Source: a virus. From it: 20,876 nucleotides of DNA. The DNA lies in the IMG/VR virus record IMGVR_UViG_3300025425_000198, positions 1 to 20,876 of that record. One strand, 5' to 3'. A program made the position numbers and the translations under genes. Under the pieces are notes generated by a model, which was given only the letters and a program-made list of their open reading frames with translations, did no database searches and was not told the DNA's origin. Positions 1-11,422 of the stretch are shown in pieces. Within the stretch, counting starts at the first letter, position 1, and each line of letters begins with the position of its first letter.

Positions 1-2
1 GT

Positions 3-542
3 GTAAGTGAGGACAAGTGTTTTGAACTTGGTGGAAAGCTGCCTGAATGCGTTAGTGATGTATGTCAATGGGTATATGATAAACGAAAGCGAAAAGTGAT
101 AGTAAAGCTTGATCAATACGATACTTGGTCTGTCTATTCAACTCTCTCTTATATCATAGTTCCATTACTTAAGCAACTTAAAAAAGAGCAGCATGGTTAT
201 CCTTCCGAATTTTGCGACGAACAAGAGTACTCACCACAGCACTCATTTGTGGGGGAAGGATTTCAACTAGAAGAAAATTCTGGCGCAAAGGAATGGGATA
301 AAGTCCTGGACAAAATGATCTGGGCATTCGAACAGACCATTGATGATGGCTGGGAGAGTCAATATTATACAGGAGAATTTGATTATAGATGGGAGGACAC
401 ATCAGATGAAGATCTTTCTGAATTAGTAAAAGGGCCGAATCATACCAGTGTTTGTGATCATGTCGGTCTGAAAAAACATCATGAACAGATGCAAGAAGGA
501 TTTGATTTGTTTGGAAAACACTATCAATCACTTTGGGATTAA
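3..542 (+). CDS. conserved phage protein, 5' end outside window
   Basis: The reading frame is open from the first bases of the window, so this is the C-terminal part (179 residues visible) of a longer gene. The GTG at 96 is not needed as a start. The motifs KLDQYDTWSVYSTLSYIIVP, MIWAFEQTIDDGWE and a C-terminal GFDLFGKHYQSLWD match a family of uncharacterised proteins that I recall as common in large tailed phages. Those proteins have the same D-x-WDTWS / FEQ / LFGKY / LWD pattern. No enzymatic motif, signal peptide or membrane segment is visible. Function unknown. The family recognition is from memory and is fairly confident. The gene ends directly against a small reading frame and a terminator. 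Confidence 0.75.
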   Translation, partial: VSEDKCFELGGKLPECVSDVCQWVYDKRKRKVIVKLDQYDTWSVYSTLSYIIVPLLKQLKKEQHGYPSEFCDEQEYSPQHSFVGEGFQLEENSGAKEWDKVLDKMIWAFEQTIDDGWESQYYTGEFDYRWEDTSDEDLSELVKGPNHTSVCDHVGLKKHHEQMQEGFDLFGKHYQSLWD

Positions 543-674
543 ATGAATAATTATAAAAGCAGAAGCAAAGTTATACCGCACTGGCGGTCAAATTGTCAAA
601 AAGGACCTGATCATATCGGGAACCACGGCCAAAAAGGTCTCAAGTCGTGGCCTGCTGGTCGCTGTGGTACATAA
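543..674 (+). CDS. possible 43-residue protein
   Basis: An ATG immediately follows the TAA of the preceding gene, and the frame runs 43 codons to TAA. The product is basic and rich in Gly, Lys, Arg, Trp and His, with two copies of a H-x-GxxGQKG-like stretch. I do not recognise it. The tight junction to the upstream stop and the position before a terminator favour a real gene, but there is no clear ribosome binding site of its own and the composition is odd. It could be non-coding. Confidence 0.3.
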   Translation: MNNYKSRSKVIPHWRSNCQKGPDHIGNHGQKGLKSWPAGRCGT

Positions 675-680
675 TAAATT

Positions 681-699
681 AAGGGCGCGGCGCCTTTTT
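681..699 (+). terminator. rho-independent terminator
   Basis: A seven-pair stem (one G-T pair) with the three-base loop CGG is followed by Ts. It separates the first gene from the late promoter at 702. Confidence 0.6.
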
Positions 700-701
700 G
701 T

Positions 702-709
702 TATAAATA
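702..709 (+). promoter_or_regulatory. T4-type late promoter (TATAAATA)
   Basis: An exact TATAAATA box lies 34 bases upstream of the start codon at 744. In T4 this box is read by gp55-loaded RNA polymerase. A purine-rich ribosome site (agagag, 735-740) lies before the gene, so this late transcript would have a normal leader. Confidence 0.55.
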
Positions 710-743
710 ATATTATCCTAACTTACAAATTATCAGAGAGATC

Positions 744-1226
744 ATGAAATCATTTAAAGAGTTTGACGAAGCAACAAAGTCCAAATTTAGCAAGGGTGAT
801 GTTGTAACTGTAAAAAATGCAAATAAATACGACTCTTTGTCTCCAAAAACACTGAAAGGTGTTGTAGATATGGTTAACCCTAACGGCACAATTAATGTAA
901 GTGTCAAAAACGGTTCTATGAGTGTTGATGCAAAAGATCTTTTGAAAGAAGCCAAGACTTCCTATGAGATATATCATGACTCTATGAGCAATGCATTTAC
1001 AGAAGTCGAAAAGGAATTAAAGAAAACCGGCTTTGCTATCGAAGATGAATCTCGATGGAATGATGTTGCAACAGGTCCTGCAAAGCCAGGCCGTGGAAAG
1101 ACAAATAGATACACCTTAACTCTTGTTGATAAAAATGGCAAGGAATCAAAGAAAAAACTACACATACAAATCTACAACAGAGAAAGCAAAAGCAAAACAT
1201 TCGAACTAAACATGTATGTAAATTAA
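744..1226 (+). CDS. small protein with capsid-targeting-like N-terminus
   Basis: A 160-residue basic protein starting MKSFKEFDEA. This resembles the MKTYQEFIAE-type capsid-targeting peptide of T4 internal proteins, which is cut off by the prohead protease after packaging. Residues 16-60 (KGDVVTVKNANKYD...GVVDMVNPNGTINV) look like a small beta-barrel (KOW/SH3-like). The rest is a charged alpha/beta segment. Start chosen by the ribosome site at 735-740. It stands behind a TATAAATA late promoter, which fits a virion-associated protein, and is followed after one base by the split-intein kinase gene. A role inside the head is inference. The biochemical function is unknown. Confidence 0.7.
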   Translation: MKSFKEFDEATKSKFSKGDVVTVKNANKYDSLSPKTLKGVVDMVNPNGTINVSVKNGSMSVDAKDLLKEAKTSYEIYHDSMSNAFTEVEKELKKTGFAIEDESRWNDVATGPAKPGRGKTNRYTLTLVDKNGKESKKKLHIQIYNRESKSKTFELNMYVN

Positions 1227-1227
1227 T

Positions 1228-1608
1228 ATGTTATCCTTTAAAAATCATATAGTGGAGCAACAAGAACTCCAAGAAAAACTTCTGCTAATCAACAAAGGCG
1301 CTCGATACGGTCAGATTGTTATACTTGCCGGTGGCGCCGGTTGTTTCTCGGCAGATACTCTGGTACATACTGAATCGGGCCATACACCAATTTCAGATAT
1401 AAAAGAAGGTGATTTGGTTTGGACTACAAATGAAGATACAGGAAACGAAGAACTTAAAGAAGTTGAAGACACCCACTCTTTCGAAGCTAATCCAGAGCCT
1501 ATGTTAGAATTAGAGTTCGATAATGGCGAAATAGTTAAGTGCACTGCAAATCACGAGTTCTTTATTGAAGGTGAATGGGTACAAGCAAAGGATATACCAA
1601 TAGCATAA
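1228..1608 (+). CDS. P-loop kinase-like protein, N-extein fused to N-intein
   Basis: 126 residues. Residues 1-38 are the N-extein: a tag-like start (MLSFKNHIVEQ) and then QIVILAGGAG, the first half of a Walker A P-loop. From Cys39 the protein is an intein N-half of 88 residues: block A CFSADTLVHTESG, block B CTANHEFF with Thr106 and His109, ending at Ala126 before two stop codons in a row (TAATAA). The remaining P-loop (SGKG) is on the separate downstream gene at 1929. The two products can be joined by protein splicing in trans to give GGAGSGKG. The 88-residue length equals that of known split intein N-halves such as gp41-1. The joined protein resembles a phage P-loop kinase (zeta-toxin/nucleotide-kinase-like) family that I recall; substrate unknown. 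Confidence 0.88.
   Translation: MLSFKNHIVEQQELQEKLLLINKGARYGQIVILAGGAGCFSADTLVHTESGHTPISDIKEGDLVWTTNEDTGNEELKEVEDTHSFEANPEPMLELEFDNGEIVKCTANHEFFIEGEWVQAKDIPIA
1342..1605 (+). other. split intein, N-terminal half (IntN)
   Basis: Encodes Cys39-Ala126 of the upstream half-gene. It has the catalytic Cys1, the block-B TxxH pair and the Hint-fold hydrophobic pattern (ISDIKEGDLVW, MLELEFDNGEIVKC). Nothing needed for the first splicing step appears lost. Confidence 0.88.
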
Positions 1609-1928
1609 TAAACGCAATACCAACACCACCTGCCAAAAGGTTTAGTTGATTTTGGAATAAATTTAGACAAACGTTTAGCATGTGAATCACAATTTCCGCA
1701 ATATAAATATAAATATATGACGGAAATGGAACTAAATATAGATAAAGCAATGATGGTGGAAGATATACGATTGGGAAATGTTGTTATAGACACAGGCAAG
1801 GCCCATCGAGTATGAATGACGACACAAAAAATGGTTAAGATTTTTAGAAAAGGCTGAATATTTAAAAGACCGAGGTCATTTTCCAGAATTGACCCTTACC
1901 GAACTTACCGAGAAATTGGAAAAAACAG
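1609..1928 (+). other. spacer between intein halves with degraded reading frames
   Basis: After TAATAA the frame of the N-half stays open for 67 codons to a TGA at 1813, with an internal ATG at 1717 (start MTEMELNIDKAMMVEDIRLG). A second frame, from about 1820 to the TGA at 1949-1951, reads protein-like (KKWLRFLEKAEYLKDRGHFP, then ELTLTELTEKLEK), but lacks a start and is cut off by a stop at 1817. Together these look like one small gene broken by a frameshift and a stop. There is no LAGLIDADG, HNH or GIY-YIG motif, so it is not a recognisable homing endonuclease. Two overlapping TATAAATA boxes (1702-1709, 1708-1715) could start a late transcript for the C-half. Confidence 0.45.
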
Positions 1929-2036
1929 ATGAAATTAATAAGAAGAAGTGAAATAACTAAGGAAGTAGTTCACGATCTGAGCATATCGGGCAATCACAAC
2001 TATCATGTCACAAAGCAAAATATGTTAGTTCATAAC
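1929..2036 (+). other. split intein, C-terminal half (IntC)
   Basis: Encodes 36 residues ending NMLVHN, followed by Ser. Length and motifs fit known natural split intein C-halves (about 35-40 residues). Confidence 0.88.
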
Positions 2037-2861
2037 TCTGGTAAAGGGTTTGCCGCAAAGAATTTTATTAACTCTCAGGATTATAAAGTTCGTGATGTTG
2101 ATGAATGGAAAATGACGTTCCTTAAAATCGATAAGTTAAAAAAGAAATATCCAGAGATACGTGGCCTCAATTTAAAGAAACCTGAAGACGTTTTTAAACT
2201 ACACAAGTTTGTAGACGAAAAAGGAATCAAAGATAAAACTCTGTCTAATATGATTGGCGCCATGCAGAATAAAGAAATATTGCCAAACATCATGTTTGAC
2301 GTTACTCTAAAAGATCTAAAGCAAATTGATAAAACTTTACCTAGAATGTATGATGCGGGATATAATCCTAACAATGTACATTTGGTTTGGATATTAACAG
2401 ATTATAAGATAGCGATTAAACAGAATGCATCCAGAGAAAGAGTAGTACCTTCAGATATTATGTTCGAAACTCATGAAGGCGCGGCCAAGACTATGTGGGA
2501 TATTGTAGATAAAAATAAGATACCCGTTGGTCTGAATGGCGGCATTCACGTTGTATTAAACAACCAAAAGAATACTATATTCTTCAAGACTTCTGATGGA
2601 AAAGATTATAGATCAAATGGTGATAAACCTACAGACTCTATTCGTGGTACCCAAGCGCGTGGTCGTACAGGATTAGATAAACCTTTCGGTGGCAAGAAGC
2701 AGAAAGGTGATATATTTGGTACAATAAAAGATTTTAAATACCTGACCCTCAAAATGCCATCCAAACCCGTAAACAAAATGATTGATATTAAAACTCAATT
2801 GTGGGGTTGGATATCTGCAAATATACCAATTGATACCCTTATGGCAAGGAAGTTCGATTAG
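1929..2861 (+). CDS. P-loop kinase-like protein, C-intein fused to C-extein
   Basis: 310 residues. Residues 1-36 are an intein C-half: HDLSISGNHNYHV (block F) and LVHN (block G) with the penultimate His and final Asn, followed by Ser37 as the +1 nucleophile. From Ser37 the sequence is SGKGFAAKNF, which completes the Walker A motif begun at 1228, then VRDVDEWK and a long kinase-like region with LPNIMFDVTLKDLKQID and NVHLVWILTDYKIAIKQN. The joined extein would be 38 + 274 = 312 residues. An in-frame TGA at 1890-1892 shows that the C-half is a separate gene and needs its own start. I recall uninterrupted relatives in other phages as a P-loop kinase/zeta-toxin-like family. The substrate is unknown. 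Confidence 0.87.
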   Translation: MKLIRRSEITKEVVHDLSISGNHNYHVTKQNMLVHNSGKGFAAKNFINSQDYKVRDVDEWKMTFLKIDKLKKKYPEIRGLNLKKPEDVFKLHKFVDEKGIKDKTLSNMIGAMQNKEILPNIMFDVTLKDLKQIDKTLPRMYDAGYNPNNVHLVWILTDYKIAIKQNASRERVVPSDIMFETHEGAAKTMWDIVDKNKIPVGLNGGIHVVLNNQKNTIFFKTSDGKDYRSNGDKPTDSIRGTQARGRTGLDKPFGGKKQKGDIFGTIKDFKYLTLKMPSKPVNKMIDIKTQLWGWISANIPIDTLMARKFD

Positions 2862-2914
2862 TACATACCAACCTGCCCCGGCACGACTTAGTTATTATAA
2901 CACACTTCTATTCA

Positions 2915-2954
2915 CTTGTCAACACCTAATTAATTAAAAATAAGTGTTGACAAG
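2915..2954 (+). repeat. 11-bp inverted repeat around a -35 box
   Basis: Perfect arms CTTGTCAACAC (2915-2925) and GTGTTGACAAG (2944-2954) with an 18-base AT loop. The right arm contains the TTGACA of the promoter at 2947. Confidence 0.8.
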
Positions 2955-2975
2955 TACCATTATTAATGATATAAT
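2947..2975 (+). promoter_or_regulatory. sigma70-type promoter for the HD hydrolase
   Basis: TTGACA, 17 bases, TATAAT. The leader TATAAATTAATTGAAGAG is shared with the promoters at 16845, 17734 and 18161. Confidence 0.9.
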
Positions 2976-3006
2976 GGTTGTATAAATTAATTGAAGAGTG
3001 TATATT

Positions 3007-3474
3007 ATGAAAACAGATCACGAAAACCGAATGCTTTCAATTGCAATCGAAATTACTGCTGCTGCTTTCTCTTATGATCTAGATAAAGGCGGTCGACCAT
3101 ATATTCTTCACTGTATTCATGTAATGAACAACATTGGAAAGAAAACAAAAAACGACCCTGAAATGATGCAAATCGCCATCATGCATGACTTGATCGAAGA
3201 CAAACCCGAATGGACATTTGATAGATTGCAGCGCACGGGTTTTAGTGACAGAGTTATTGCTGGAATTGAGTCGATGACTCATTTACCAGACGAAGATTAT
3301 GATCAATACATTAATAGAATCGCCGTAAATGAGGACGCGGTAATGGTAAAATTAATTGATCTGAAACATAACATGGACCCAACTCGTATGAAAGGTTTGC
3401 GTGGAAAAGACTTTGCTCGGATTGAAAAATATCATCATGCCTTTGCTTATTTGGCAACTTTAACTTTTGCGTAA
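3007..3474 (+). CDS. HD-domain hydrolase, SpoT/MESH1-like
   Basis: 155 residues with the metal-binding pattern of RelA/SpoT-type ppGpp hydrolases: His35 in ILHCIHVM, His60-Asp61 in MHDLIED, and the third motif KLIDLKHNMD (Asp118, His121). Single-domain proteins of this kind (MESH1 type) remove the 3'-pyrophosphate of (p)ppGpp, or act on related nucleotides. The synthetase, TGS and ACT domains of full SpoT are absent. ATG 3007 is preferred over the GTG at 2998, because gaagag (2993-2998) is then a well-spaced ribosome site and the leader matches those of three other genes here. In a phage this could blunt the host stringent response. That role is inference. Confidence 0.8.
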   Translation: MKTDHENRMLSIAIEITAAAFSYDLDKGGRPYILHCIHVMNNIGKKTKNDPEMMQIAIMHDLIEDKPEWTFDRLQRTGFSDRVIAGIESMTHLPDEDYDQYINRIAVNEDAVMVKLIDLKHNMDPTRMKGLRGKDFARIEKYHHAFAYLATLTFA

Positions 3475-3482
3475 TTTATGAT

Positions 3483-3584
3483 ATGAACAAACACAAGATA
3501 ACTGTATTAAAGTTTAAGCTGGTGTTGGTTGTGACCTTCTTGGTGTTAATCGGCATTTTGCACTACTGTATAAAATTGAAATGA
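3483..3584 (+). CDS. 33-residue single-pass membrane peptide
   Basis: A short frame starting ATG, four bases after the preceding stop. It has a basic N-terminus (MNKHKITVLKFK) followed by an unbroken hydrophobic stretch (LVLVVTFLVLIGIL) able to span the membrane, and a short Lys-rich tail. No family is recognised. It lies between the hydrolase and DNA ligase, probably in the same operon. It is short but has the typical charge pattern of a small inner-membrane protein. Confidence 0.45.
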   Translation: MNKHKITVLKFKLVLVVTFLVLIGILHYCIKLK

Positions 3585-3594
3585 GAAATTAATA

Positions 3595-4914
3595 ATGACA
3601 TTTAAAACAAATCCTTGGGATTTCATAGTACATCTTCAGAGCGACAATGGTAAAACTTTTAAACAGAATGCCATCCGCGTCGAAGCTGAAGCAGGAAATG
3701 ACGAATTGTTTGCAGGGTTTAATTTAGCAATGAATCCTCTTATCACGTTTGGAGTTAAAAAAATTCCTTGGTCTACACAATCATTTGATTCACCTACGTT
3801 ACCATGGGATGACTTTACTAATTTAACAGATGACCTCGAATCTAGAAGGTTGACGGGACATGCAGCAAGAGATGCGATAATCGAAGTTATGCAAAAGTCT
3901 GGCAAAGATCAATGGGACTTCTGGTATCGCCATATTCTTATTCAGGATATGAGATCAGGATTTACTGAATCCACAGTCAACAAGGCAGTAAAAGAGGCGG
4001 GTATGCTAACAGAATATGGTATTCCTGTTTTTGCTTGTATGCTTGCTCATGATAGTGCAAAACACGAAAAGAAAGTTGTAGGTAAAAAGCAAATAGAAAT
4101 CAAGCTCGATGGAGTTAGAGTTCTGACTGTAATCAAGGCCAACAAAGGTGGTATCATCCAAACCACTCGCAATGGCCGTGAATTGCTTAATTTTGGCCAC
4201 ACGAAGACGGAATTGTCGGCACTAGATTTTCCTGTTGATATGGTACTTGACGGTGAAATTATGTCGAGCAACTTTCAAGACCTGATGACTCAAGTCAATA
4301 GACAAAGTGATGTGGATGCTGGTGATGCTGTGCTTCACGTATTTGATATATTGCCCTTGGATGAATTTCTTGCTGGAAAAAGTCTATTAAAACAAGCCGA
4401 ACGCTCCGTTGTTGTAGAATCATATAACAAATCATATCTATTCAAACACATTAGATTTTTATCTAGTGAAGTGGTTGATCTTGATACTGACGCAGGTCGG
4501 GCAAGATATAAAGAAATTAATAAACAAGCAATCGAGGGTGGATATGAAGGAATCATGCTTAAAGACCCAGAATCATTTTATGAATGTAAACGGTCTTCAA
4601 GTTGGTTGAAATTAAAACCATTCATAACGCTTGACTTGAAGGTGATAAAGCTAGAAGAAGGCGAAGGAAAATATAAAGGCACCCTTGGTGCACTTGTATG
4701 CAGTGGTGTTGAAGATGGTAAAGAGATCTTGGTTAGTGTTGGGTCAGGGTTGACTGACGAGACTCGCGATCTTATATGGAATAGCGATAACCCTGTTGGT
4801 GTCGTAGAGATAAAAGCAGACGCCATCACTCAGTCTAGAGATAAAGACACTTATAGTTTAAGATTTCCGCGATTCGTCCGATTCCGCGGCTTTGATGAAC
4901 AGGAGAAAATGTAA
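3595..4914 (+). CDS. 30: ATP-dependent DNA ligase (T4 gp30-like)
   Basis: 439 residues. It seals nicks in double-stranded DNA during replication and repair, using ATP. Motif I is KLDGVR with the adenylated Lys170. Also visible are TRNGREL (183-197 region), LDGEIM (motif III, about 218-223), HVFDILP (248-254), EGIMLK (motif IV, 318-323) and WLKLKP (motif V, 337-342). The C-terminal OB-fold follows (residues ~345-430). It is somewhat shorter than T4 gp30 (about 487 residues). ATG 3595 follows the membrane-peptide gene by ten bases. The next gene overlaps its stop by one base (TAATG), so the two are translationally coupled. Confidence 0.93.
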   Translation: MTFKTNPWDFIVHLQSDNGKTFKQNAIRVEAEAGNDELFAGFNLAMNPLITFGVKKIPWSTQSFDSPTLPWDDFTNLTDDLESRRLTGHAARDAIIEVMQKSGKDQWDFWYRHILIQDMRSGFTESTVNKAVKEAGMLTEYGIPVFACMLAHDSAKHEKKVVGKKQIEIKLDGVRVLTVIKANKGGIIQTTRNGRELLNFGHTKTELSALDFPVDMVLDGEIMSSNFQDLMTQVNRQSDVDAGDAVLHVFDILPLDEFLAGKSLLKQAERSVVVESYNKSYLFKHIRFLSSEVVDLDTDAGRARYKEINKQAIEGGYEGIMLKDPESFYECKRSSSWLKLKPFITLDLKVIKLEEGEGKYKGTLGALVCSGVEDGKEILVSVGSGLTDETRDLIWNSDNPVGVVEIKADAITQSRDKDTYSLRFPRFVRFRGFDEQEKM

Positions 4915-5186
4915 TGAATAAACAAGATTTAACAATTGAAGAAAAAATGCTACATATGTTCGAGGTTGTACATGGAAAAATGTCAAGGGGTATCAACGCT
5001 ATATATGTAGCCCAGGATGATGATGATGATGATAGTCCTAAGGAAGATACTATCTTTGTGATGAAAGACGAATGTGTAGCTTGGAGTGTTACTAAAAGCG
5101 ACTTGTTTTTTGATTATCTGACAAGAAACTTGAATATGTGGGAAATCAAACATGGCGAAGAAAGACAAGGTGGTGTATCGCAATGA
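4914..5186 (+). CDS. small acidic phage protein
   Basis: 90 residues, unrecognised. It starts in the TAATG overlap with the ligase stop, with a strong ribosome site (aggag, 4901-4905). A run of six Asp codons written as a perfect (GAT)6 repeat (5016-5033) splits an N-terminal helix from a C-terminal part with FFDYLTRNLNMWEIKHGEE. The repeat could change length by slippage without breaking the frame. Its stop overlaps the start of the nucleotidyltransferase (ATGA). Confidence 0.7.
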   Translation: MNKQDLTIEEKMLHMFEVVHGKMSRGINAIYVAQDDDDDDSPKEDTIFVMKDECVAWSVTKSDLFFDYLTRNLNMWEIKHGEERQGGVSQ

Positions 5187-5620
5187 TCATAGGCATAACT
5201 TTTAGCACCTTTGATCTTTTTCATGCAGGTCACGTTTCCATGTTACACGAAGCAAAACAAAAATGTGATTATCTAATTGTAGGATTACAGTCAGACCCGA
5301 CTATCGACAGGCCTCAAAAGAATGCACCTATTCAGTCTTTGTTTGAAAGATATGTGCAATTAAAAGGGTGTCGGTACGTTGATGAGATCGTGCCGTACAC
5401 ACGTGAGACCGATCTTGAAGATATAATGCTCACATATGATATACACAAGAGATTTATTGGCGAAGAGTATAAAATGACAAATTTCACAGGTAAGTCGATT
5501 TGTGGTAAGAGAGACATCGAAATCGTGTACAACCAACGAAAGCACTCTTTTAGCACTACTAATTTGAGAGAACGCGTAGTTGAACGATATATTGGCGATG
5601 TTGTTGACATTACACCATAG
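5183..5620 (+). CDS. cytidylyltransferase-like nucleotidyltransferase
   Basis: 145 residues. HxGH motif at His14-His17 (FDLFHAGH), VGLQSDPT (residues 33-40) and the C-terminal SFSTTNLR (122-129, equivalent to the STTxx signature) identify the glycerol-3-phosphate cytidylyltransferase / RfaE-C type Rossmann fold. The likely reaction is transfer of CMP or AMP to a sugar or polyol phosphate. The exact substrate cannot be read. The start at 5183 overlaps the previous stop (ATGA) and begins directly at the first beta-strand; a longer frame from 5138 adds a tail not seen in the family. The promoter for the next gene lies inside its last codons. Confidence 0.85.
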   Translation: MIIGITFSTFDLFHAGHVSMLHEAKQKCDYLIVGLQSDPTIDRPQKNAPIQSLFERYVQLKGCRYVDEIVPYTRETDLEDIMLTYDIHKRFIGEEYKMTNFTGKSICGKRDIEIVYNQRKHSFSTTNLRERVVERYIGDVVDITP

Positions 5621-5632
5621 TTGTGGTATAAT
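5604..5632 (+). promoter_or_regulatory. sigma70-type promoter
   Basis: TTGACA, 17 bases, TATAAT, beginning inside the 3' end of the nucleotidyltransferase gene and serving the operon from 5667. Confidence 0.9.
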
Positions 5633-5666
5633 ACACGTACTAAATAATTAAGTAGGAAGTCATTAA

Positions 5667-5975
5667 ATGGGTATGATGTGTTCGTGGTTTGGCCATAAAG
5701 TTGATCGAAAAAACGTTCATCGTCGGGTACGAGGCACTTACACTTTCTTTGACATAAAATCAAATTACCACAGTGAACGGTACAGTAGATGTTTGCGCTG
5801 TCATGTAGATATTTCATATATACGTTACTTCGATATCTGGAAAACTGAATCAGAAATAGAAAGTGCGAACCTGCGTGAGTTTATTGGTGCTAATTATAAG
5901 AAGATTGAGAAAAAAATTTATGTCAACAGAAAATTATACAGACGAACAATATCTTATTATGGAAGAAGAAAATGA
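5667..5975 (+). CDS. small zinc-ribbon-like protein
   Basis: 102 residues. Cys5 and His10 (CSWFGH) pair with CLRC (Cys42, Cys45) as four likely zinc ligands, a pattern common in small phage proteins. The C-terminal third is very basic (KKIEKKIYVNRKLYRRT...YYGRRK). Start supported by aggaag at 5653-5658. No known function. The 3' end overlaps the next gene by 56 bases in another frame, a large overlap, so the basic C-terminal tail may be under weak constraint. Confidence 0.7.
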   Translation: MGMMCSWFGHKVDRKNVHRRVRGTYTFFDIKSNYHSERYSRCLRCHVDISYIRYFDIWKTESEIESANLREFIGANYKKIEKKIYVNRKLYRRTISYYGRRK

Positions 5976-6138
5976 TTCGTGGTATTCAGAACATATGTAC
6001 GAAAGCGCCATGGAATGGGACTACTGGCACCAAGAGGAAATGTCCAAGATGGATCTTGTAAACAACCCCGAGCCTGAACCCGAAGACATTTATGAAATAC
6101 TGTCTAGAGGTCATTATGACAGCGAGGATTATAGATGA
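5920..6138 (+). CDS. small acidic phage protein
   Basis: 72 residues (MSTENYTDEQYLIMEEENDS...), rich in Glu, Asp, Tyr and Trp. The ATG at 5920 is favoured over the upstream frame start at 5863, because the region before 5920 reads as a shadow of the zinc-ribbon gene. Not recognised. It overlaps the next start as ATGA, so it is coupled to the membrane protein. Confidence 0.6.
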   Translation: MSTENYTDEQYLIMEEENDSWYSEHMYESAMEWDYWHQEEMSKMDLVNNPEPEPEDIYEILSRGHYDSEDYR

Positions 6139-6392
6139 ATATATTAAACAGATATGCATTTTGTGTGGTGGATACAGTCAAGTTTCATAAGCATCCTTAT
6201 TGTTCTATTTGGTATGGCATCTTTATGATGTTTATGATCTTTAATGCAATAGAGGGAATGATCGAAATCCTAATATGGGGTGCGCCATTTCAACACAGTT
6301 GGGACTATGTTTTTCTGGCTGCATTCATTTTGTCTGGTGTGTGGATATCCGTATTGCACCATGAATACCAAAAAATGAGAAATAAATCTTGA
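6135..6392 (+). CDS. two-helix membrane protein
   Basis: 85 residues with two hydrophobic helices (about 24-47 and 55-75) joined by a short loop. Charged ends. The start overlaps the preceding stop (ATGA). No family recognised. Probably in the inner membrane and part of the small operon read from the promoter at 5604. Confidence 0.65.
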   Translation: MNILNRYAFCVVDTVKFHKHPYCSIWYGIFMMFMIFNAIEGMIEILIWGAPFQHSWDYVFLAAFILSGVWISVLHHEYQKMRNKS

Positions 6393-6658
6393 TACAGAGC
6401 AAATTTGTATCGTTGGTGGAAACTTGTCTAAATACGATCATTGGATTTGTAATAGGGTTTATCTCATGGCCTGTGATTGCGTCAATAACAGGCATGAACT
6501 TTACATCTAATCAACATTGGGCCATTGTTACATTTTTTACTGTAATCAGTATTGCTCGTGGTTATATTGTTAGACGATGGTTCAATAATCATTTAAACTA
6601 CGTGGCAACAAGGTTGGAATACTACAAGATACAATTCTTTAGTTATTGGGAATCTTAA
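6389..6658 (+). CDS. two-helix membrane protein with TTG start (DUF7220-like)
   Basis: 89 residues. The only possible start that keeps the whole conserved part is TTG at 6389, overlapping the preceding TGA (TTGA). The N-terminus QSKFVSLVETCLNTIIGF and the segment AIVTFFTVISIARGYIVRRWFN match my memory of a widespread phage family (KQSRRxSLVE...FTxVSIxRSYxLRRLF; DUF7220). Two transmembrane helices are predicted (about 13-34 and 43-60). Function unknown. Confidence 0.7.
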   Translation: MIQSKFVSLVETCLNTIIGFVIGFISWPVIASITGMNFTSNQHWAIVTFFTVISIARGYIVRRWFNNHLNYVATRLEYYKIQFFSYWES

Positions 6659-6662
6659 AAGT

Positions 6663-6670
6663 TATAAATA
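6663..6670 (+). promoter_or_regulatory. T4-type late promoter, start codon five bases on
   Basis: Exact TATAAATA, then GCTAA, then ATG at 6676. No ribosome site lies between box and start. If transcription starts six bases after the box, as for T4 late promoters, the message would begin at the start codon. Confidence 0.55.
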
Positions 6671-6675
6671 GCTAA

Positions 6676-7056
6676 ATGAAATCCTTTAAAAACTTTAACG
6701 AAGAAATAACTCAAGATCAACTTAATCAGGTAGAGAAGTTTGCCGACAAGTTGTTTAAAAAGGCAAACATCGATGTATCTTTTACACGACATTTCGCCGA
6801 CAGAATGAATGATGAGAGAAATGGAAAACCCATTACTGCTGCAGAGTTAATAAGTCTGTTCAGAAAAGCTTGGAAAAAAATGGGAAAATCTATGGCAGAC
6901 TTTCCAGACAATTTCGAGGCAGTTATTAATGATGTTGCAAACGATGTAAACATACCGTTTGTCATAAACGCACGTCCAAAAGATAAAGAGATGGTCACAA
7001 AGACTATCATGAGAAAGAAAGACTTTAAGTCTAACGACCCTAAAATTAAGGTATGA
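6676..7056 (+). CDS. conserved phage protein with capsid-targeting-like N-terminus
   Basis: 126 residues. It begins MKSFKNFNEE (tag-like), then QLNQVEKFADKLFKKANIDV, FTRHFADRMNDERNGKPITA and AELISLFRKAWKKMGK. I recall this pattern from a conserved family of T4-like phages and cyanophages with no fixed function (FTRHFxDRxNDxRNGKxI). The C-terminus KTIMRKKDF is also typical. The gene stands directly behind a TATAAATA box and has no ribosome site. Late expression and packaging into the head are inferred. Confidence 0.75.
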   Translation: MKSFKNFNEEITQDQLNQVEKFADKLFKKANIDVSFTRHFADRMNDERNGKPITAAELISLFRKAWKKMGKSMADFPDNFEAVINDVANDVNIPFVINARPKDKEMVTKTIMRKKDFKSNDPKIKV

Positions 7057-7057
7057 T

Positions 7058-7294
7058 ATGAAAACATTTAAATTTTTTAGAGAACAAGATTGCTGGGACG
7101 GCTATAAGAAAGACGGTAAGCAGGACGGTACTGGAAAGAACAAAGGTAAGATGGTTAATAAATGTGTCAAAGAAGATGATTTTGAGCCGCACATGATGTA
7201 TGACCCTAAGACAGGAAAAAGCAAAATGGCAAAGGTTAAAGCAGATCATCTAAAAATGAAAGATATGGGTTGGTCTCACGAAGCACCAAAATAA
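7058..7294 (+). CDS. small CWDGYKK-type phage protein with tag-like N-terminus
   Basis: 78 residues. MKTFKFFREQ is followed by CWDGYKKDGKQDGTGK and NKCVKEDD, then YDPKTGKSKMAKVKADHLKM and GWSHEAP. Both modules occur in many phage small proteins that I recall: the C(W/K)xGYK...NCV motif and the KMAKVKADHLKxxxMGWSHE motif. No function is known. It lies one base after the preceding gene and probably shares its late transcript. The two Cys could bind metal, but only two are present. Confidence 0.72.
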   Translation: MKTFKFFREQDCWDGYKKDGKQDGTGKNKGKMVNKCVKEDDFEPHMMYDPKTGKSKMAKVKADHLKMKDMGWSHEAPK

Positions 7295-7297
7295 AGG

Positions 7298-7326
7298 TTG
7301 ACAAAGGTGTAAAAACCTGTTATAAT
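7298..7326 (+). promoter_or_regulatory. sigma70-type promoter
   Basis: TTGACA, 17 bases, TATAAT. AGGTT/AACCT arms flank the spacer (7296-7318). Confidence 0.88.
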
Positions 7327-7350
7327 AACTATATATTAAATAATAAAACG

Positions 7351-7358
7351 TATAAATA
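7351..7358 (+). promoter_or_regulatory. T4-type late promoter box
   Basis: TATAAATA followed by five bases and ATG at 7364, the same spacing as at 6663 and 11632. It lies downstream of an early-type promoter, so the peptide gene could be read in both phases. Confidence 0.45.
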
Positions 7359-7363
7359 AACAT

Positions 7364-7438
7364 ATGAAAACATTAATTTTAAAACTAGAACAACTCTTAA
7401 AACACGAGAAATTGTGTAGCGGGGATGCATTGTCTTAA
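7364..7438 (+). CDS. possible 24-residue peptide
   Basis: ATG to TAA, MKTLILKLEQLLKHEKLCSG..., predicted as a single amphipathic helix. It lies between two promoters and a terminator. It weakly resembles the N-terminus of the protein at 16905 (ISEIIAKLETDLLLYGD). May be a remnant. Confidence 0.35.
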   Translation: MKTLILKLEQLLKHEKLCSGDALS

Positions 7439-7472
7439 AGAAAGTAACAAACTTATAATAAGAGACAACGTT

Positions 7473-7503
7473 AACCCGCCATAGAAATATCGCGGGTTTT
7501 TTT
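7473..7503 (+). terminator. rho-independent terminator before the tRNA cluster
   Basis: Perfect stem AACCCGC/GCGGGTT, 12-base loop, seven Ts overlapping the stem end. Confidence 0.85.
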
Positions 7504-7523
7504 ATGGGTAGAATATATTTTGG

Positions 7524-7599
7524 GGTGTGATAGGTGTAATTGGAAGCATGCATGACTGTGACTCATGAGGGTTGGGTTCGAAACCCAGATTACACCCCA
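7524..7599 (+). tRNA. tRNA-His (GTG)
   Basis: Anticodon loop CTGTGAC. Extra G at -1 opposite C73, the mark of His tRNAs. Acceptor pairs GTGTGAT with ATTACAC; CCA encoded. Base 8 is A rather than T. Confidence 0.85.
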
Positions 7600-7619
7600 A
7601 AATATATTAAAAGAATTAT

Positions 7620-7697
7620 ACATCTGTCTGCTAACTGGAATAGGCAACTTGACTTTCAATCAGGGAAATGCGGGTTCGATCCCCGTCAGATGTACCA
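7620..7697 (+). tRNA. tRNA-Glu (TTC)
   Basis: Acceptor ACATCTG/CAGATGT, loop CTTTCAA, GGTTCGATCC T-arm, CCA encoded. First of two Glu genes. Confidence 0.85.
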
Positions 7698-7711
7698 AAT
7701 AAGAGAATAGT

Positions 7712-7939
7712 ATGATGGTTATATGGAAAACAATGCCCGTTATGATTAAGGTCAAAATGCAACATCTTCGTAAGATGGGTAAAGGTAAACTTGCCAATAG
7801 TCATATTATGGATAATGGCGAGGTGCCAGTTGCTGTATTTAATGAGATCACTAATTTGATGATGGGAGTTGATAATAACCGCGGGACTGCTTACGCTTGC
7901 CGCAACCGTCTACGATATAGAAAAAGAAAAACAACTTAA
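7712..7939 (+). CDS. small basic protein between tRNAs
   Basis: 75 residues, Met- and Lys-rich at the start (WKTMPVMIKVKMQHLRKMGK), then AVFNEITNLMM and an Arg-rich tail (ACRNRLRYRKRK). ATG 7712 has a weak purine-rich site upstream. Not recognised. The strong positive charge suggests nucleic-acid binding, which is inference only. It fills the gap between tRNA-Glu and tRNA-Leu. Confidence 0.5.
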   Translation: MMVIWKTMPVMIKVKMQHLRKMGKGKLANSHIMDNGEVPVAVFNEITNLMMGVDNNRGTAYACRNRLRYRKRKTT

Positions 7940-7956
7940 TAAGTTGAGGATTTAAT

Positions 7957-8039
7957 GCGAGGGTGGCTAATGAGAATTGGCAGATCTACTGGTTTTAGAA
8001 ACCAGGCCTTTGAGGGTTCGAGTCCCTCTCCTCGTACCA
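7957..8039 (+). tRNA. tRNA-Leu (TAG)
   Basis: Loop TTTAGAA, acceptor GCGAGGG/TCCTCGT (G-T at both ends), CCA encoded. Variable loop is only six bases (GCCTTT), and the 8-26 region is about six bases longer than normal. Confidence 0.8.
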
Positions 8040-8075
8040 AAATGCGTGAACGCTACACGATAACAAAGCGGACCT

Positions 8076-8151
8076 GGGTCCATAATATAAAGGGCAATTA
8101 TCCCGGACTTTTAATCCGGTTATCAGAGTTCGAATCTCTGTGGACCCACCA
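8076..8151 (+). tRNA. tRNA-Lys (TTT)
   Basis: Acceptor GGGTCCA/TGGACCC, stem CCGGA/TCCGG, loop CTTTTAA, CCA encoded. Confidence 0.92.
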
Positions 8152-8157
8152 TTTTAC

Positions 8158-8232
8158 GTCTCTATGGATTACCGGTTAGATCACTTGGCTTTCACCCAAG
8201 AGTAGGGGGTTCGATTCCCCCTAGAGACACCA
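8158..8232 (+). tRNA. tRNA-Glu (TTC), second copy
   Basis: Acceptor GTCTCTA/TAGAGAC, loop CTTTCAC, CCA encoded. Sequence differs clearly from the Glu tRNA at 7620. Confidence 0.92.
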
Positions 8233-8259
8233 AATTAATCTGACTTAGGTTAGAATAAT

Positions 8260-8337
8260 ACCACCATACCCCAATTGGCAGAGGGGACTGTTTCAAAAGT
8301 AGTTAATGTCTCGGTTCGAATCCGAGTGGTGGTACCA
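8260..8337 (+). tRNA. tRNA-Leu (CAA)
   Basis: Acceptor ACCACCA/TGGTGGT, D-stem CCCC/GGGG, loop TTCAAAA, CCA encoded. Short variable loop (TAATGT). Confidence 0.85.
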
Positions 8338-8343
8338 AATTAT

Positions 8344-8420
8344 GCGTCGGTGGTCCAATTGGCAGAGGCGCTGGACTTAAAATCCAGATGTTGCGGGTTC
8401 GACTCCCGCTCGACGTACCA
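8344..8420 (+). tRNA. tRNA-Leu (TAA)
   Basis: Loop CTTAAAA, stem CTGGA/TCCAG, CCA encoded. Leu-like 5' half, but the variable loop is only about five bases. Confidence 0.88.
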
Positions 8421-8445
8421 TTTTAAACAGGAAACAGGAAATATT

Positions 8446-8667
8446 ATGAATATCAAAGACATGGTCAAGAACAAGCAAGTAACCTTCCAATATTACAGAG
8501 AAGGGGAATTGTGGTACTCTACTGCTTGTGGTTTTAATTTCCCAGTACCTATTGCTGATGTGGGCGGCGCTTCATTAATGGCCTCAGATCGGGCCATTAT
8601 GTTTATGAGGTGGATCAGAAAGCACATTACTATGCTGCAGTCCGCAAAGCAAGCAGAGATATCGTGA
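8446..8667 (+). CDS. conserved small phage protein
   Basis: 73 residues, MNIKDMVKNKQVTFQYYREG, ELWYSTACGFNFPVPIAD and AIMFMRWIRKHI. I recall the same pattern (VxFxYYRDGELWY...FPVPxxD...A.L.MRYIRKH) in a conserved family of T4-like phages with no known function. The ATG at 8446 with aggaaa upstream is the start; the longer open frame runs backwards through tRNA genes. It overlaps the next gene as GTGA. Confidence 0.78.
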   Translation: MNIKDMVKNKQVTFQYYREGELWYSTACGFNFPVPIADVGGASLMASDRAIMFMRWIRKHITMLQSAKQAEIS

Positions 8668-9053
8668 ATATCGAGCCAGACATAAATTTCAATATACCTG
8701 CACAAAAACTTGAGGTTGTGGGTTTGACATTAACCAAAGATGCATCACAATTTATCAAATGGGAGATTGATAACCGTGGAATCGAGACTATAGGAGTTCG
8801 ATTTGGTGTAGAAGGTGCTGGTTGTGGTGGTTATCAATATCTGGTTGAATTCGTGGAGACGCCTGATGAATATGATTACAAGTTCACGGATGCTCATGAC
8901 GGCGTGTCTATATTTGTTGATAAGAAATCTATATTGTTTATCGATGGAATGGAAGTTGACTACGTTAAGAAACTATTCGAGTCTGGCTTGACATTTAACA
9001 ATCCACTGGCAGGACAGGCATGTGGATGTGGTGAATCATTTAGTTTAAAATAA
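8664..9053 (+). CDS. A-type iron-sulfur cluster carrier (IscA/ErpA/HesB-like)
   Basis: 129 residues. The HesB/IscA fold is clear: LTLTKDASQFIKW, IGVRFGVEGAGCGGYQY, DGMEVDYVKKL and the C-terminal NNPLAGQACGCGESF. The three cluster-binding cysteines are Cys54, Cys120 and Cys122 (CGC). Such proteins pass [Fe-S] clusters to apo-enzymes. GTG 8664, overlapping the preceding TGA, is chosen; the GTG at 8610 would add residues that are a shadow of the upstream gene. A phage copy may help mature a phage or host Fe-S enzyme late in infection (inference). It lies among tRNA genes. Confidence 0.9.
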   Translation: MNIEPDINFNIPAQKLEVVGLTLTKDASQFIKWEIDNRGIETIGVRFGVEGAGCGGYQYLVEFVETPDEYDYKFTDAHDGVSIFVDKKSILFIDGMEVDYVKKLFESGLTFNNPLAGQACGCGESFSLK

Positions 9054-9101
9054 ATTTAGATTAAGCACAAAACTTGTATATATAATACATAACCAAAATT
9101 A

Positions 9102-9212
9102 ATGAGCAAAATGACTTCCCTAAGACAACAGTTTATATCGATTCAATATCCGACGATCAATGATCGCGGCAATTGGGCGAGCATGGCCGATATTGGCTTG
9201 GGGAAAGTATAA
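9102..9212 (+). CDS. possible 36-residue protein
   Basis: ATG to TAA, MSKMTSLRQQFISIQ... ending RGNWASMADIGLGKV. No clear ribosome site; a weak TATAAT lies at 9081. Not recognised. It ends 31 bases before a strong terminator, so a transcript crosses it. Confidence 0.25.
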   Translation: MSKMTSLRQQFISIQYPTINDRGNWASMADIGLGKV

Positions 9213-9243
9213 CTTGATATAAAAACCATATTCAAGAATACCA

Positions 9244-9276
9244 AACCCCAACTCTTCACAGATTGGGGTTTTTTTT
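9244..9276 (+). terminator. rho-independent terminator
   Basis: Perfect stem AACCCCAA/TTGGGGTT, 11-base loop, eight Ts. Closes the first tRNA/IscA transcript. Confidence 0.9.
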
Positions 9277-9301
9277 GGACTGAATAAATTAAAAATAAAG
9301 G

Positions 9302-9330
9302 TTGACATAGGCACAAAATCCTGTTATAAT
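9302..9330 (+). promoter_or_regulatory. sigma70-type promoter for tRNA-Ile
   Basis: TTGACA, 17 bases, TATAAT, about 25 bases before tRNA-Ile. Confidence 0.9.
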
Positions 9331-9355
9331 AAATGTATAGGAAATGAGAAATTAT

Positions 9356-9429
9356 TCTCGATTAGCTCAAAGGTAGAGCATTCGGCTGATAACCGAACGA
9401 CGGTGGATCGTTACCATCATTGAGAACCA
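9356..9429 (+). tRNA. tRNA-Ile (GAT)
   Basis: Acceptor TCTCGAT/ATTGAGA, D-stem GCTC/GAGC, loop CTGATAA, CCA encoded. T-loop is ATCGTTA instead of TTCGANN: 54 and 58 are swapped. Confidence 0.85.
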
Positions 9430-9476
9430 AATTATATCGATATAACCATAAGTTCTAACTAAACTGAAATTAGTTG

Positions 9477-9505
9477 TTGACATATTGCCGGGACTATGGT
9501 ATAAT
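9477..9505 (+). promoter_or_regulatory. sigma70-type promoter
   Basis: TTGACA, 17 bases, TATAAT. The -35 lies in ATTAGTTGTTGAC, with AACTAA upstream as inverted arm. Confidence 0.9.
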
Positions 9506-9530
9506 ACATGTATAGAAATTGAGAAATATT

Positions 9531-9698
9531 ATGATACAGAATAAATTCAAATCCAAGGTAACTAAATTGTTATTAAAATGGGGAAACAATGAGAATGATG
9601 TAGCAAAAATGCTTGATAATAATTATGAATATGCTGTAAAGACGTACAGTCAAGCTAAACCCGCTTCCATCGCTGATATCATTAGTTCACTACGATAA
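9531..9698 (+). CDS. small conserved phage protein
   Basis: 55 residues, MIQNKFKSKVTKLLLKWG, VAKMLDNNYEYAVKTY and a C-terminal PASIADIISSLR. A short helical protein. The pattern (V..MLD.NYEYA...Y....ASIADIISS) recalls small proteins of T4-like phages. The strong promoter, the leader with gaga (9521-9524) and a clean ATG support it. Function unknown. Confidence 0.7.
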   Translation: MIQNKFKSKVTKLLLKWGNNENDVAKMLDNNYEYAVKTYSQAKPASIADIISSLR

Positions 9699-9735
9699 GT
9701 ACTGAATCTAATTATAAGAATATTGCAATTAGTTG

Positions 9736-9764
9736 TTGACACAGGTACTAAATCCTGTTATAAT
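9736..9764 (+). promoter_or_regulatory. sigma70-type promoter
   Basis: TTGACA, 17 bases, TATAAT. Only a 15-codon frame (ATG 9793) and the terminator at 9873 follow, so it may make a short RNA of about 130 bases. Confidence 0.88.
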
Positions 9765-9872
9765 GAATGTATAGGAAATTGGGAATTTGTAAATGCTGAT
9801 CAAGAATCAAGAATTAAGAATTCCTTTAGTTGAAAAATAGAAAAATATAGAAGAAGACGACATAAGATATGG

Positions 9873-9904
9873 TTAAGGCCTGCAAATCAGGCCTTAATTT
9901 TCTT
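9873..9904 (+). terminator. rho-independent terminator
   Basis: Perfect 10-bp stem TTAAGGCCTG/CAGGCCTTAA, five-base loop, then TTTTCTTT. Confidence 0.9.
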
Positions 9905-9944
9905 TATAATTATAACGATATAACAATTAATTATAAAGAAAATT
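9896..9944 (+). repeat. 17-bp perfect inverted repeat
   Basis: Arms 9896-9912 and 9928-9944 (AATTTTCTTTATAATTA and its complement) with a 15-base loop containing CGATATAACAA. It sits between the terminator and the next promoter. Confidence 0.9.
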
Positions 9945-9955
9945 AAGAAAAAAGA

Positions 9956-9984
9956 TTGACAAGTTCGAAAAACCATGTTATAAT
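9956..9984 (+). promoter_or_regulatory. sigma70-type promoter
   Basis: TTGACA, 17 bases, TATAAT; leads into the hairpin leader and gene at 10176. Confidence 0.9.
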
Positions 9985-10058
9985 ACATGTATAAGAAATA
10001 AGAAATACATCGGGGTGTTCCTCTGATGAATGATCTTCAATAAATTAGAATATACAAA

Positions 10059-10096
10059 GCGGTGATTCGCTAACTATTTGATGATAGAATCACCGC
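10059..10096 (+). ncRNA. leader hairpin, possible cis-acting RNA
   Basis: Perfect 10-bp arms GCGGTGATTC/GAATCACCGC around 18 bases that can form a further CTAT/ATAG stem. No T run follows, so it is not a terminator. A second element, GATTGG/CCAATC, follows (10105-10140) before the strong ribosome site at 10164. Confidence 0.45.
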
Positions 10097-10175
10097 GAGG
10101 ATATGATTGGTGCGAGTGCTCAGTTGCTGGGCAGCCAATCAGATGCCTTTATTAATCTTTCATAGGAGGAACGGG

Positions 10176-10421
10176 ATGAAAAATCCAGTGGCAAAACATG
10201 CTCGTACTTATAACAAGTCTGTTGTAATGCGTGACAAGAAAAAAGATTATACTCGAAAGGGTAAGTCAAATTTTAAGAAAACAATCAAAGATTACTTTTT
10301 AATGGTAATAACGCTGCATATGGTTTGCAGATCACCATCAAAAAGTATTCTTACGATTCAACTGAGATGTCAGTGCTGCAGCAACAATTTTTATAAACTT
10401 TCTTTGAGTTCGAACTCTTGA
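10176..10421 (+). CDS. small basic phage protein
   Basis: 81 residues. MKNPVAKHARTYNKSVVMRD and KKKDYTRKGK are like a family of small, very basic phage proteins that I recall (N-P-V-A-K...N-K...K-K-x-Y-x-R-K). The start has the best ribosome site of the window (aggagga, 10164-10170). The C-terminal half (VITLHMVCRS...CQCCSNNFYKL) does not look like the family, which usually stops near residue 50. A frameshift or fusion into former non-coding sequence is possible. Confidence 0.55.
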   Translation: MKNPVAKHARTYNKSVVMRDKKKDYTRKGKSNFKKTIKDYFLMVITLHMVCRSPSKSILTIQLRCQCCSNNFYKLSLSSNS

Positions 10422-10497
10422 TCGTAGAAAAAAAATTGTAAATCATCTAAGGAGGAACTCAGCTGCCTTATAAAAAAATACGGTTGAGCCAATTTAT

Positions 10498-10574
10498 TCC
10501 AAACGGGCCCTCTAGGTGGGGGCATTGCACTGTTAATGCAAGCGTGCTAGGATCGTAGCCTAGGTTTGGAGCCA
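10498..10574 (+). tRNA. tRNA-Asn (GTT)
   Basis: Acceptor TCCAAAC/GTTTGGA, stem TTGCA/TGCAA, loop CTGTTAA, G73, CCA encoded. T-loop ATCGTAG (54/58 swapped). Confidence 0.88.
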
Positions 10575-10583
10575 ATTTTTAAA

Positions 10584-10608
10584 ACAGTAACAACAGCAAT
10601 GTTACTGT
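10584..10608 (+). repeat. 8-bp hairpin between tRNAs
   Basis: Perfect ACAGTAAC/GTTACTGT with nine-base loop; no T run. May guide tRNA processing. Confidence 0.5.
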
Positions 10609-10618
10609 GCAATTTAAT

Positions 10619-10773
10619 GTTCCCGTAGTCTAATTGGATAGGCACGTTGCAATAAGTCGATATAAGGTAACGTGTATATTACATGATAACAAATAATGCG
10701 TGTATGGTAAAACTGGAAATCACACGATTCTTCTAAAGTCAAGTTCAGGGTTCGAGTCCTATCGGGAATGCCA
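10619..10773 (+). tRNA. tRNA-Arg (TCT) interrupted by 80 nt
   Basis: 5' half: acceptor GTTCCCG, TA, D-arm GTCT-AATTGGAT-AGGC. 3' half: loop CTTCTAA (anticodon TCT), TTCGAGT T-loop, acceptor CGGGAAT pairing fully with the 5' strand, G73 and CCA. Between the halves an 80-base stretch is bounded by the direct repeat CACG (10643-10646, 10723-10726). Taking out 80 bases leaves 75, a normal tRNA. The T-stem is imperfect. Confidence 0.65.
10647..10726 (+). other. insertion within tRNA-Arg
   Basis: 80 bases with no reading frame. Stems form at each junction: ACGTTGC/GTAACGT across the 5' one (10644-10650 with 10667-10673) and CGTGT/ACACG at the 3' one (10699-10703 with 10722-10726). Too short for a group I or II intron. 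Part of it (GGTAAAACTGGAAATC) looks like a second D-arm, so tRNA recombination is another origin. Confidence 0.5.
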
Positions 10774-10777
10774 AAAC

Positions 10778-10852
10778 GCCCCTAAAGCATAAAAGGTGAT
10801 GCACCGGTTTTGTAATCCGGATAAGTTGGTTCGATTCCGACTAGGGGCTCCA
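10778..10852 (+). tRNA. tRNA-Thr (TGT)
   Basis: Acceptor GCCCCTA/TAGGGGC, D-arm GCAT/ATGC, loop TTTGTAA, CCA encoded. 31-39 is a T-T mismatch. Confidence 0.9.
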
Positions 10853-10857
10853 ATTAC

Positions 10858-10933
10858 GCGTCTTAGGCAGTTGTGGTCAATGCGCTGGTTTGAAGAACCA
10901 GATAACGAGGTTCGATTCCTCGAGGACGCACCA
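10858..10933 (+). tRNA. tRNA-Phe (GAA)
   Basis: Acceptor GCGTCTT/AGGACGC, stem CTGGT/ACCAG, loop TTGAAGA, CCA encoded. Confidence 0.92.
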
Positions 10934-10947
10934 AATTTAGAATATTG

Positions 10948-11112: not shown

Positions 11113-11128
11113 GAATATTTTAAATTAA

Positions 11129-11204: not shown

Positions 11205-11272
11205 ACATGTAGATGCTACCACTTTGTACAAGGTGATCAGCAAGGCGAATGGAAAGTTTGCCGCCAATTTAT

Positions 11273-11335: not shown

Positions 11336-11344
11336 CCTTTTTAA

Positions 11345-11416: not shown

Positions 11417-11422
11417 AATATG

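What the first reader, a model, noticed from the sequence alone, without database searches (positions are those of the whole stretch)
1228..2861. Split intein cutting the Walker A motif of a probable capsid-packaged kinase
Seen: N-half ends GGAG + intein (Cys1, TANH); C-half has HN + SGKGF. All splicing residues are present. Splicing would give GGAGSGKGFAAKNF. Two separate genes with 320 bases between them and stops in every connecting frame mean splicing in trans. Placing the break in the ATP-binding loop makes activity fully dependent on splicing. The N-extein also has the capsid-entry-like tag. Known: gp41-1-type split inteins have the same half sizes (88 and about 36 residues).
Basis: partly seen in the sequence, partly recalled or inferred. 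Interest (0 to 1): 0.85.

Follow-up and report, generated by a model that had tools for sequence, protein, structure and literature searches.

The report
Split intein in phage packaged kinase
A T4-like virus of bacteria makes one of its enzymes, probably carried inside the virus head, as two separate proteins that must be stitched together in the middle of the ATP-binding loop by a self-splicing element; close relatives have the same gene whole, so it is a clean new example of a known but rare arrangement.

Summary
Confirmed. Window 1228-1608 encodes a 38-residue N-extein plus an 88-residue N-intein. Window 1929-2861 encodes a 36-residue C-intein plus a 274-residue C-extein. The 320-base gap has stops in every + frame. 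Close relatives are uninterrupted exactly at the junction, GGAG|SGKGF (87% and 84% identical to the joined exteins; 79 of the 80 best IMG/VR relatives). The joined exteins score 32.7 bits with Pfam Zeta_toxin (cut-off 22.3); the C-half alone scores 17.8. The same site carries a contiguous mini-intein in one phage contig, a split intein with an endonuclease-like ORF in another, and a long contiguous intein in Tenacibaculum phage PTm1. The N-extein has the T4 capsid-targeting layout (aromatic residue 4, I8-x-E10), and an LxE prohead-protease site at one fixed position in 37 of 37 informative relatives. The long contig carrying this locus encodes gp21-like protease and gp23, and a second split intein, in nrdA, with an HNH ORF. 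Best reading: a trans-splicing intein, remnant of a homing "fractured gene" whose endonuclease has decayed, which makes both kinase activity and capsid targeting depend on ligation. Splicing, packaging and kinase activity are inferred, not shown. New member of a known kind.

The parts
1228..1341 (+). N-extein (38 aa): MLSFKNHIVEQQELQEKLLLINKGARYGQIVILAGGAG, first half of the Walker A loop
   Evidence: aligned to uninterrupted homologues
1228..1275 (+). Probable capsid-targeting propeptide: F4, H7, I8-V-E10 (1249-1257) and L14-Q-E16 (1267-1275) prohead-protease-type sites
   Evidence: LxE at a fixed place in 37/37 informative relatives; positions 4, 7, 8 and 10 as in T4 IPIII CTS (PMC9026906; count); pLDDT < 50 over residues 1-17 of the homologue model
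1342..1605 (+). N-intein, 88 aa, Cys1 and block B TANH
   Evidence: Pfam Hint/Intein_splicing; alignment A2
1606..1611 (+). Tandem stop codons TAA TAA ending the N-half
1609..1928 (+). 320-base gap with no recognisable gene; stops in every + frame; probably the relic of an endonuclease gene (inferred)
   Evidence: no match in PHROGs or meaningful match in the phage collection; endonuclease-like ORFs sit at this place in L162, S16 and the nrdA split locus
1702..1719 (+). Two overlapping T4-late-promoter-like boxes TATAAATATAAATA followed by ATG
   Evidence: 6 in window against 2.6 expected, 2 of 100 shuffles reach 6; all on + strand
1929..2036 (+). C-intein, 36 aa, ending VHN
   Evidence: weak Intein_splicing C-end match; alignment A2
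2037..2858 (+). C-extein, 274 aa: SGKGFAAKNF..., rest of the zeta-toxin-like P-loop kinase
   Evidence: phrog_5268 E 7.7e-40; Zeta_toxin 32.7 bits when joined to the N-extein; Foldseek of homologue model
702..709 (+). TATAAATA box upstream of the MKSFK gene and the N-half
744..1226 (+). Upstream gene with a CTS-like start (MKSFKEF); its MKSFK-starting counterpart also lies directly upstream of the kinase in L010

Best explanation
A class-1 (Cys1, Ser+1) split intein sits in the Walker A loop of a zeta-toxin-like P-loop kinase of a T4-like phage. The N-precursor (capsid-targeting peptide, 22 further residues, N-intein) and the C-precursor (C-intein, kinase body) are made from separate ORFs, probably both late in infection. 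They associate, the intein excises itself, and GGAG is joined to SGKGF. Because the capsid-targeting peptide and the kinase body are on different polypeptides, only the ligated product can both bind ATP and enter the prohead. The tag is then probably cut at I8-x-E10 or L14-x-E16 by the gp21-like protease, and the kinase injected with the DNA. The element is most likely the remnant of a homing 'fractured gene': contiguous intein, then invasion of its loop by a free-standing endonuclease, then decay of the endonuclease to the present 320-base gap. Shown: gene anatomy, splicing residues, empty, contiguous and split states of the same site, conserved protease site, kinase family. Inferred: splicing, late expression, packaging, cleavage, kinase activity, and the order of events.
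For: Both halves with all class-1 splicing residues and intein profiles over cut-off when joined. Uninterrupted homologues exactly at the junction. Joined exteins rise from 17.8 to 32.7 bits on Zeta_toxin. Same-site contiguous mini-intein in L231 and split intein with an endonuclease-like ORF in L162; a different contiguous intein at the same site in phage PTm1. L/I-x-E site at a fixed position in 37/37 (background 0.4% per position); T4 CTS layout; gp21 and gp23 homologues in the long contig. Zeta/PezT toxins are the top fold matches of a homologue. Second split intein, in nrdA, with HNH ORF in the same contig.
Against: No splicing, expression or mass data. The gap shows no detectable similarity to any endonuclease, so the relic reading rests on position, the promoter-like box and analogy. 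The window and the long contig are identical, so there is only one example of this exact locus, perhaps from one population. The intein tree is unresolved, so common descent of the same-site inteins is suggested by identity only. The structure model of L231 was of low confidence in the intein part.
Confidence: 0.85

Rival explanations
1. The intein halves are dead: the gene is a pseudogene in decay and the two fragments no longer splice.
For: The gap carries no intact gene, so part of the locus has already decayed or was never coding.
Against: Every splicing residue is intact in both halves; the C-extein is open over 274 codons with all family-invariant residues; the joined exteins are 87% identical to intact L010, which does not look like free decay.
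Confidence: 0.08
2. The two fragments work as non-covalently associated subunits without splicing, as split NrdA of Aeromonas phage Aeh1 does (PMC2988022).
For: Precedent in T4-like phages where endonuclease insertion split a gene and the enzyme stayed functional.
Against: The break falls inside the P-loop, and both fragments carry complete, paired intein halves, which that model does not need.
Confidence: 0.03
3. Assembly or sequencing artefact: the true gene holds one continuous intein, with stops or frameshifts introduced by error.
For: Metagenomic record; the only other copy is identical and may come from the same data.
Against: The gap has many stops in all + frames, so no single error makes it continuous; tandem TAA TAA ends the N-half and a fresh ATG begins the C-half; split arrangements recur in L162, S16, PM2 and nrdA.
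Confidence: 0.03

Closest known systems
UvsW split intein of Salmonella phage S16, SEA1 and Proteus phage PM2
   Same: Closest intein found in a named gene (40-41% identity over both halves for S16 and PM2); Cys1; split at the same point; T4-like phages; order N-half, gap, C-half
   Different: Host gene is the UvsW helicase and the first downstream residue is Cys; an 876-base ORF (endonuclease-profile match in S16) fills the gap, whereas here the gap holds no gene
gp41-1 and the other metagenomic split inteins (gp41-8, NrdJ-1, IMPDH-1)
   Same: Same size (124 against 125 residues, PMC11766414), class 1 with Cys1 and Ser+1; profile A2 matches gp41-1 (6qaz, 1.2e-11) and NrdJ-1 (8ubs, 8.7e-16)
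   Different: gp41-1 is not listed by a single-sequence search at 0.01, so only a distant relative; different host protein
Fractured genes (Dassa et al. 2009, cited from PMC7090010 and PMC10448857; paper itself not held)
   Same: Gene cut into two ORFs, each with an intein half, in phage DNA
   Different: No endonuclease gene in the gap here; host gene is a kinase of unknown function
Zeta / PezT toxin kinases
   Same: Pfam Zeta_toxin over cut-off for the joined exteins and for intact L027; top Foldseek matches 3q8x, 2p5t, 1gvn
   Different: 12-15% identity over the fold; no antitoxin gene recognised beside it; substrate unknown; CTS-like N-terminus
T4 internal proteins with a capsid-targeting sequence (IPIII and others)
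   Same: About 10-residue N-terminal peptide with targeting residues 4 and 7 and processing residues 8 and 10, protease motif L/I-x-E (PMC9026906)
   Different: Cargo is a kinase rather than an IP; packaging not shown
Contiguous intein in Tenacibaculum phage PTm1 ORF-187
   Same: Identical insertion point GGAG|SGKGF in a homologous kinase
   Different: Single ORF with a much longer intein, about 25% identity at the ends; ends in SGN, not VHN

Membership tests
Class-1 split intein | Two intein halves on separate genes flanking adjacent exteins | tested here: met
   adjacency by empty sites
Class-1 split intein | Nucleophile Cys/Ser at 1, block B TxxH, C-terminal HN, Ser/Thr/Cys at +1 | tested here: met
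   Cys1, TANH, VHN, Ser+1
Class-1 split intein | Splices in trans | not testable with these tools
   needs expression
Fractured gene | Split intein with a free-standing homing endonuclease gene between the halves | tested here: not met
   no gene or profile match in 1609-1928; met in L162, S16 and nrdA of the long contig. Called a probable derivative, not a member in the strict sense
gp41-1 intein group | Close sequence kinship to gp41-1 | tested here: inconclusive
   only the five-sequence profile reaches gp41-1; the single sequence does not at 0.01
Zeta_toxin (PF06414) | Score over the curated cut-off | tested here: met
   32.7 against 22.3 bits for joined exteins
Zeta_toxin (PF06414) | UDP-GlcNAc phosphorylation and toxicity | not testable with these tools
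   P-loop Lys41, D58-V-D60, R171 and R173 are invariant in A1; substrate unknown
T4-type capsid-targeted internal protein | Short N-terminal CTS with L/I-x-E cleavage site | tested here: met
T4-type capsid-targeted internal protein | gp21-type prohead protease in the same phage | tested here: met
   Peptidase_S77 at 2.3e-41 in the long contig
T4-type capsid-targeted internal protein | Found inside the virion | not testable with these tools
   needs virion proteomics

The most novel reading that the evidence does not exclude
The split has been kept because it helps the phage: with the targeting peptide and the kinase body on separate polypeptides under separate late promoters, a potentially harmful zeta-like kinase stays inactive in the cell and is assembled by trans-splicing only when and where both halves meet, possibly in the prohead core, so that splicing gates packaging of an injected effector.
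Probability: 0.08. Interest if true: 0.8.

Novelty: new member of a known kind. Interest (0 to 1): 0.5.

Why it matters
It adds a natural split intein at the Walker A loop of a phage kinase, with the states empty, contiguous, split with endonuclease-like ORF, and split without it all present at one insertion site in related phages. That makes the proposed route by which split inteins arise directly comparable at a single site. The intein is also a candidate protein-ligation tool, and the host protein appears to be a widespread, uncharacterised, probably head-packaged zeta-like kinase (561 confirmed relatives in IMG/VR).

Tried and rejected
Gap as a recognisable endonuclease: PHROGs with the gap frames gave nothing at E 10, tblastn and blastn against the phage collection gave nothing meaningful, and tblastx against all fetched loci only noise. 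Intein tree: unresolved, five of six inner branches open, long branches meet. Structure of the L231 contiguous precursor: low confidence in the intein, so no fold claim from it. A sequence profile of the kinase found no convincing solved relative; only the fold comparison did. Dassa 2009, Carvajal-Vallejos 2012 and Taylor 2011 were not held.

Full report
Observation. ORF 1228-1608 (126 aa) reads MLSFKNHIVEQQELQEKLLLINKGARYGQIVILAGGAG followed by an 88-residue N-intein starting at Cys (codon 1342-1344), and ends in tandem TAA codons. ORF 1929-2861 (310 aa) starts with a 36-residue C-intein ending VHN (2034-2036 is the Asn codon), followed by Ser (2037-2039) and the rest of SGKGFAAKNF. The gap 1609-1928 has stops in all three forward frames. 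The N-half matches Hint and intein profiles. With the halves joined, the intein passes the Intein_splicing cut-off (46.9 against 35.8 bits).

The exteins belong together. Two IMG/VR contigs carry the uninterrupted gene: L010 (87% identical to the joined exteins) and L011 (84%), both reading ...VILAGGAGSGKGFAA.... Of the 80 best relatives, 79 are uninterrupted at this point; the exception is the window's own locus in the long contig. PHROG family phrog_5268 matches the C-half at 7.7e-40 and, weakly, the N-half over residues 11-60. Pfam Zeta_toxin gives 17.8 bits (below cut-off) for the C-half alone and 32.7 (above) for the joined exteins.

One site, several states. Besides empty sites, the same junction GGAG|SGKGF is occupied in other phages. 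L231 (IMGVR_UViG_3300022867_000408) has a contiguous 124-residue mini-intein in one 475-residue protein. L162 (IMGVR_UViG_3300005753_000042) has a split intein with an endonuclease-like sequence between the halves, seemingly in two overlapping frames (profile phrog_15427 'endonuclease', 3.6e-7; phrog_218 scores a little better). Tenacibaculum phage PTm1 has a long contiguous intein ending SGN. The window intein is 45-49% identical to those of L231 and L162, 40-41% to the split UvsW inteins of Salmonella S16 and Proteus PM2, about 30% to the nrdA intein of its own genome and 25% to the ends of PTm1's (the tree itself is unresolved). In S16 and PM2 an 876-base ORF lies between the halves; the S16 ORF matches an endonuclease profile at 9e-20.

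The genome. Window 1-15722 is identical to part of a 198,785-base IMG/VR contig (only that part was compared). That contig encodes a gp23 major capsid protein (1.5e-138) and a gp21-type prohead protease (2.3e-41), and has a second split intein, in nrdA, with an HNH homing-endonuclease ORF between the halves.

The gap. It holds no recognisable gene. It does hold two overlapping TATAAATA boxes directly before an ATG (1702-1719). The window has six such boxes against 2.6 expected, all on the + strand; one lies directly upstream of the GIY-YIG endonuclease ORF at 11645, and one directly upstream of the HNH ORF in the nrdA gap. I infer that the gap is the decayed remainder of an endonuclease gene with its late promoter, and that this promoter may now serve the C-half. 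That is inference by position; no sequence similarity supports it.

The protein and its tag. The intact homologue L027 was modelled at mean pLDDT 70.4, with residues 1-17 below 50, i.e. up to the LxE16-K17 boundary. Its best fold matches are zeta and PezT toxins, then polynucleotide kinases. LxE occurs at one fixed place, 21 residues before the loop segment, in 37 of 37 informative relatives, against a background of 0.4% per position. In T4 the gp21 protease cuts after L/I-x-E, and the IPIII capsid-targeting sequence is the first 10 residues, with targeting mainly at positions 4 and 7 and processing at 8 and 10 (PMC9026906). The window N-extein has F4, H7, I8 and E10, and 22 of 43 distinct relatives' N-termini have L/I8 with E10 under the start codon chosen by script. 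So capsid packaging and processing are well supported by sequence, though not shown.

Mechanism. Most likely the halves are made from separate ORFs in late infection, trans-splice, and give a 312-residue kinase precursor. As the targeting peptide is on one polypeptide and most of the ATP site on the other, neither precursor alone can be a packaged active kinase. Since nearly all relatives manage without the intein, the simplest view is a mobile-element remnant tolerated because it splices out, not a regulatory device.

Known or new. Split inteins in phage-derived and metagenomic genes are known (gp41-1, gp41-8, NrdJ-1, IMPDH-1, NrdA; PMC11766414, PMC7090010, PMC3653736). The strict 'fractured gene' definition, an endonuclease gene between the halves, was tested and is not met here, so I file this as a split intein and call it a probable derivative of a fractured gene. 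What is new is the host protein, the insertion site in a phage zeta-like kinase, and the range of states at that one site. Library searches found no earlier report of it, but the library lacks most subscription papers.

Noticed in passing
L022 (long contig G001:71877-74884, - strand): Second split intein of the same phage, in nrdA (ribonucleotide reductase large subunit), with an HNH homing-endonuclease ORF between the halves.
   Followed up: partly
L024 1814-4540 (Salmonella phage S16) and L026 1814-4546 (Proteus phage PM2): UvsW gene is cut by a split intein with an endonuclease-like ORF between the halves; the records shown call the pieces helicase fragments and hypothetical proteins without an intein note.
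   Followed up: partly
L162, reverse strand 565-2946: Split intein at the same kinase site with endonuclease-like ORFs in the gap that seem frameshifted at a repeat (NFYKSKYGNGWE).
   Followed up: partly
window 7525-13684: Sixteen tRNA genes on the + strand, followed by an RtcB RNA ligase gene at 14310-15497, suggesting tRNA repair.
   Followed up: no
window 11645-12196: GIY-YIG homing endonuclease ORF (phrog_314) inside the tRNA cluster, start codon 5 bases after a TATAAATA box.
   Followed up: no
window 6676-7056: Another ORF with a CTS-like start (MKSFKNF) directly after a TATAAATA box; it matches the C-terminal end of a 602-residue PHROG family.
   Followed up: no
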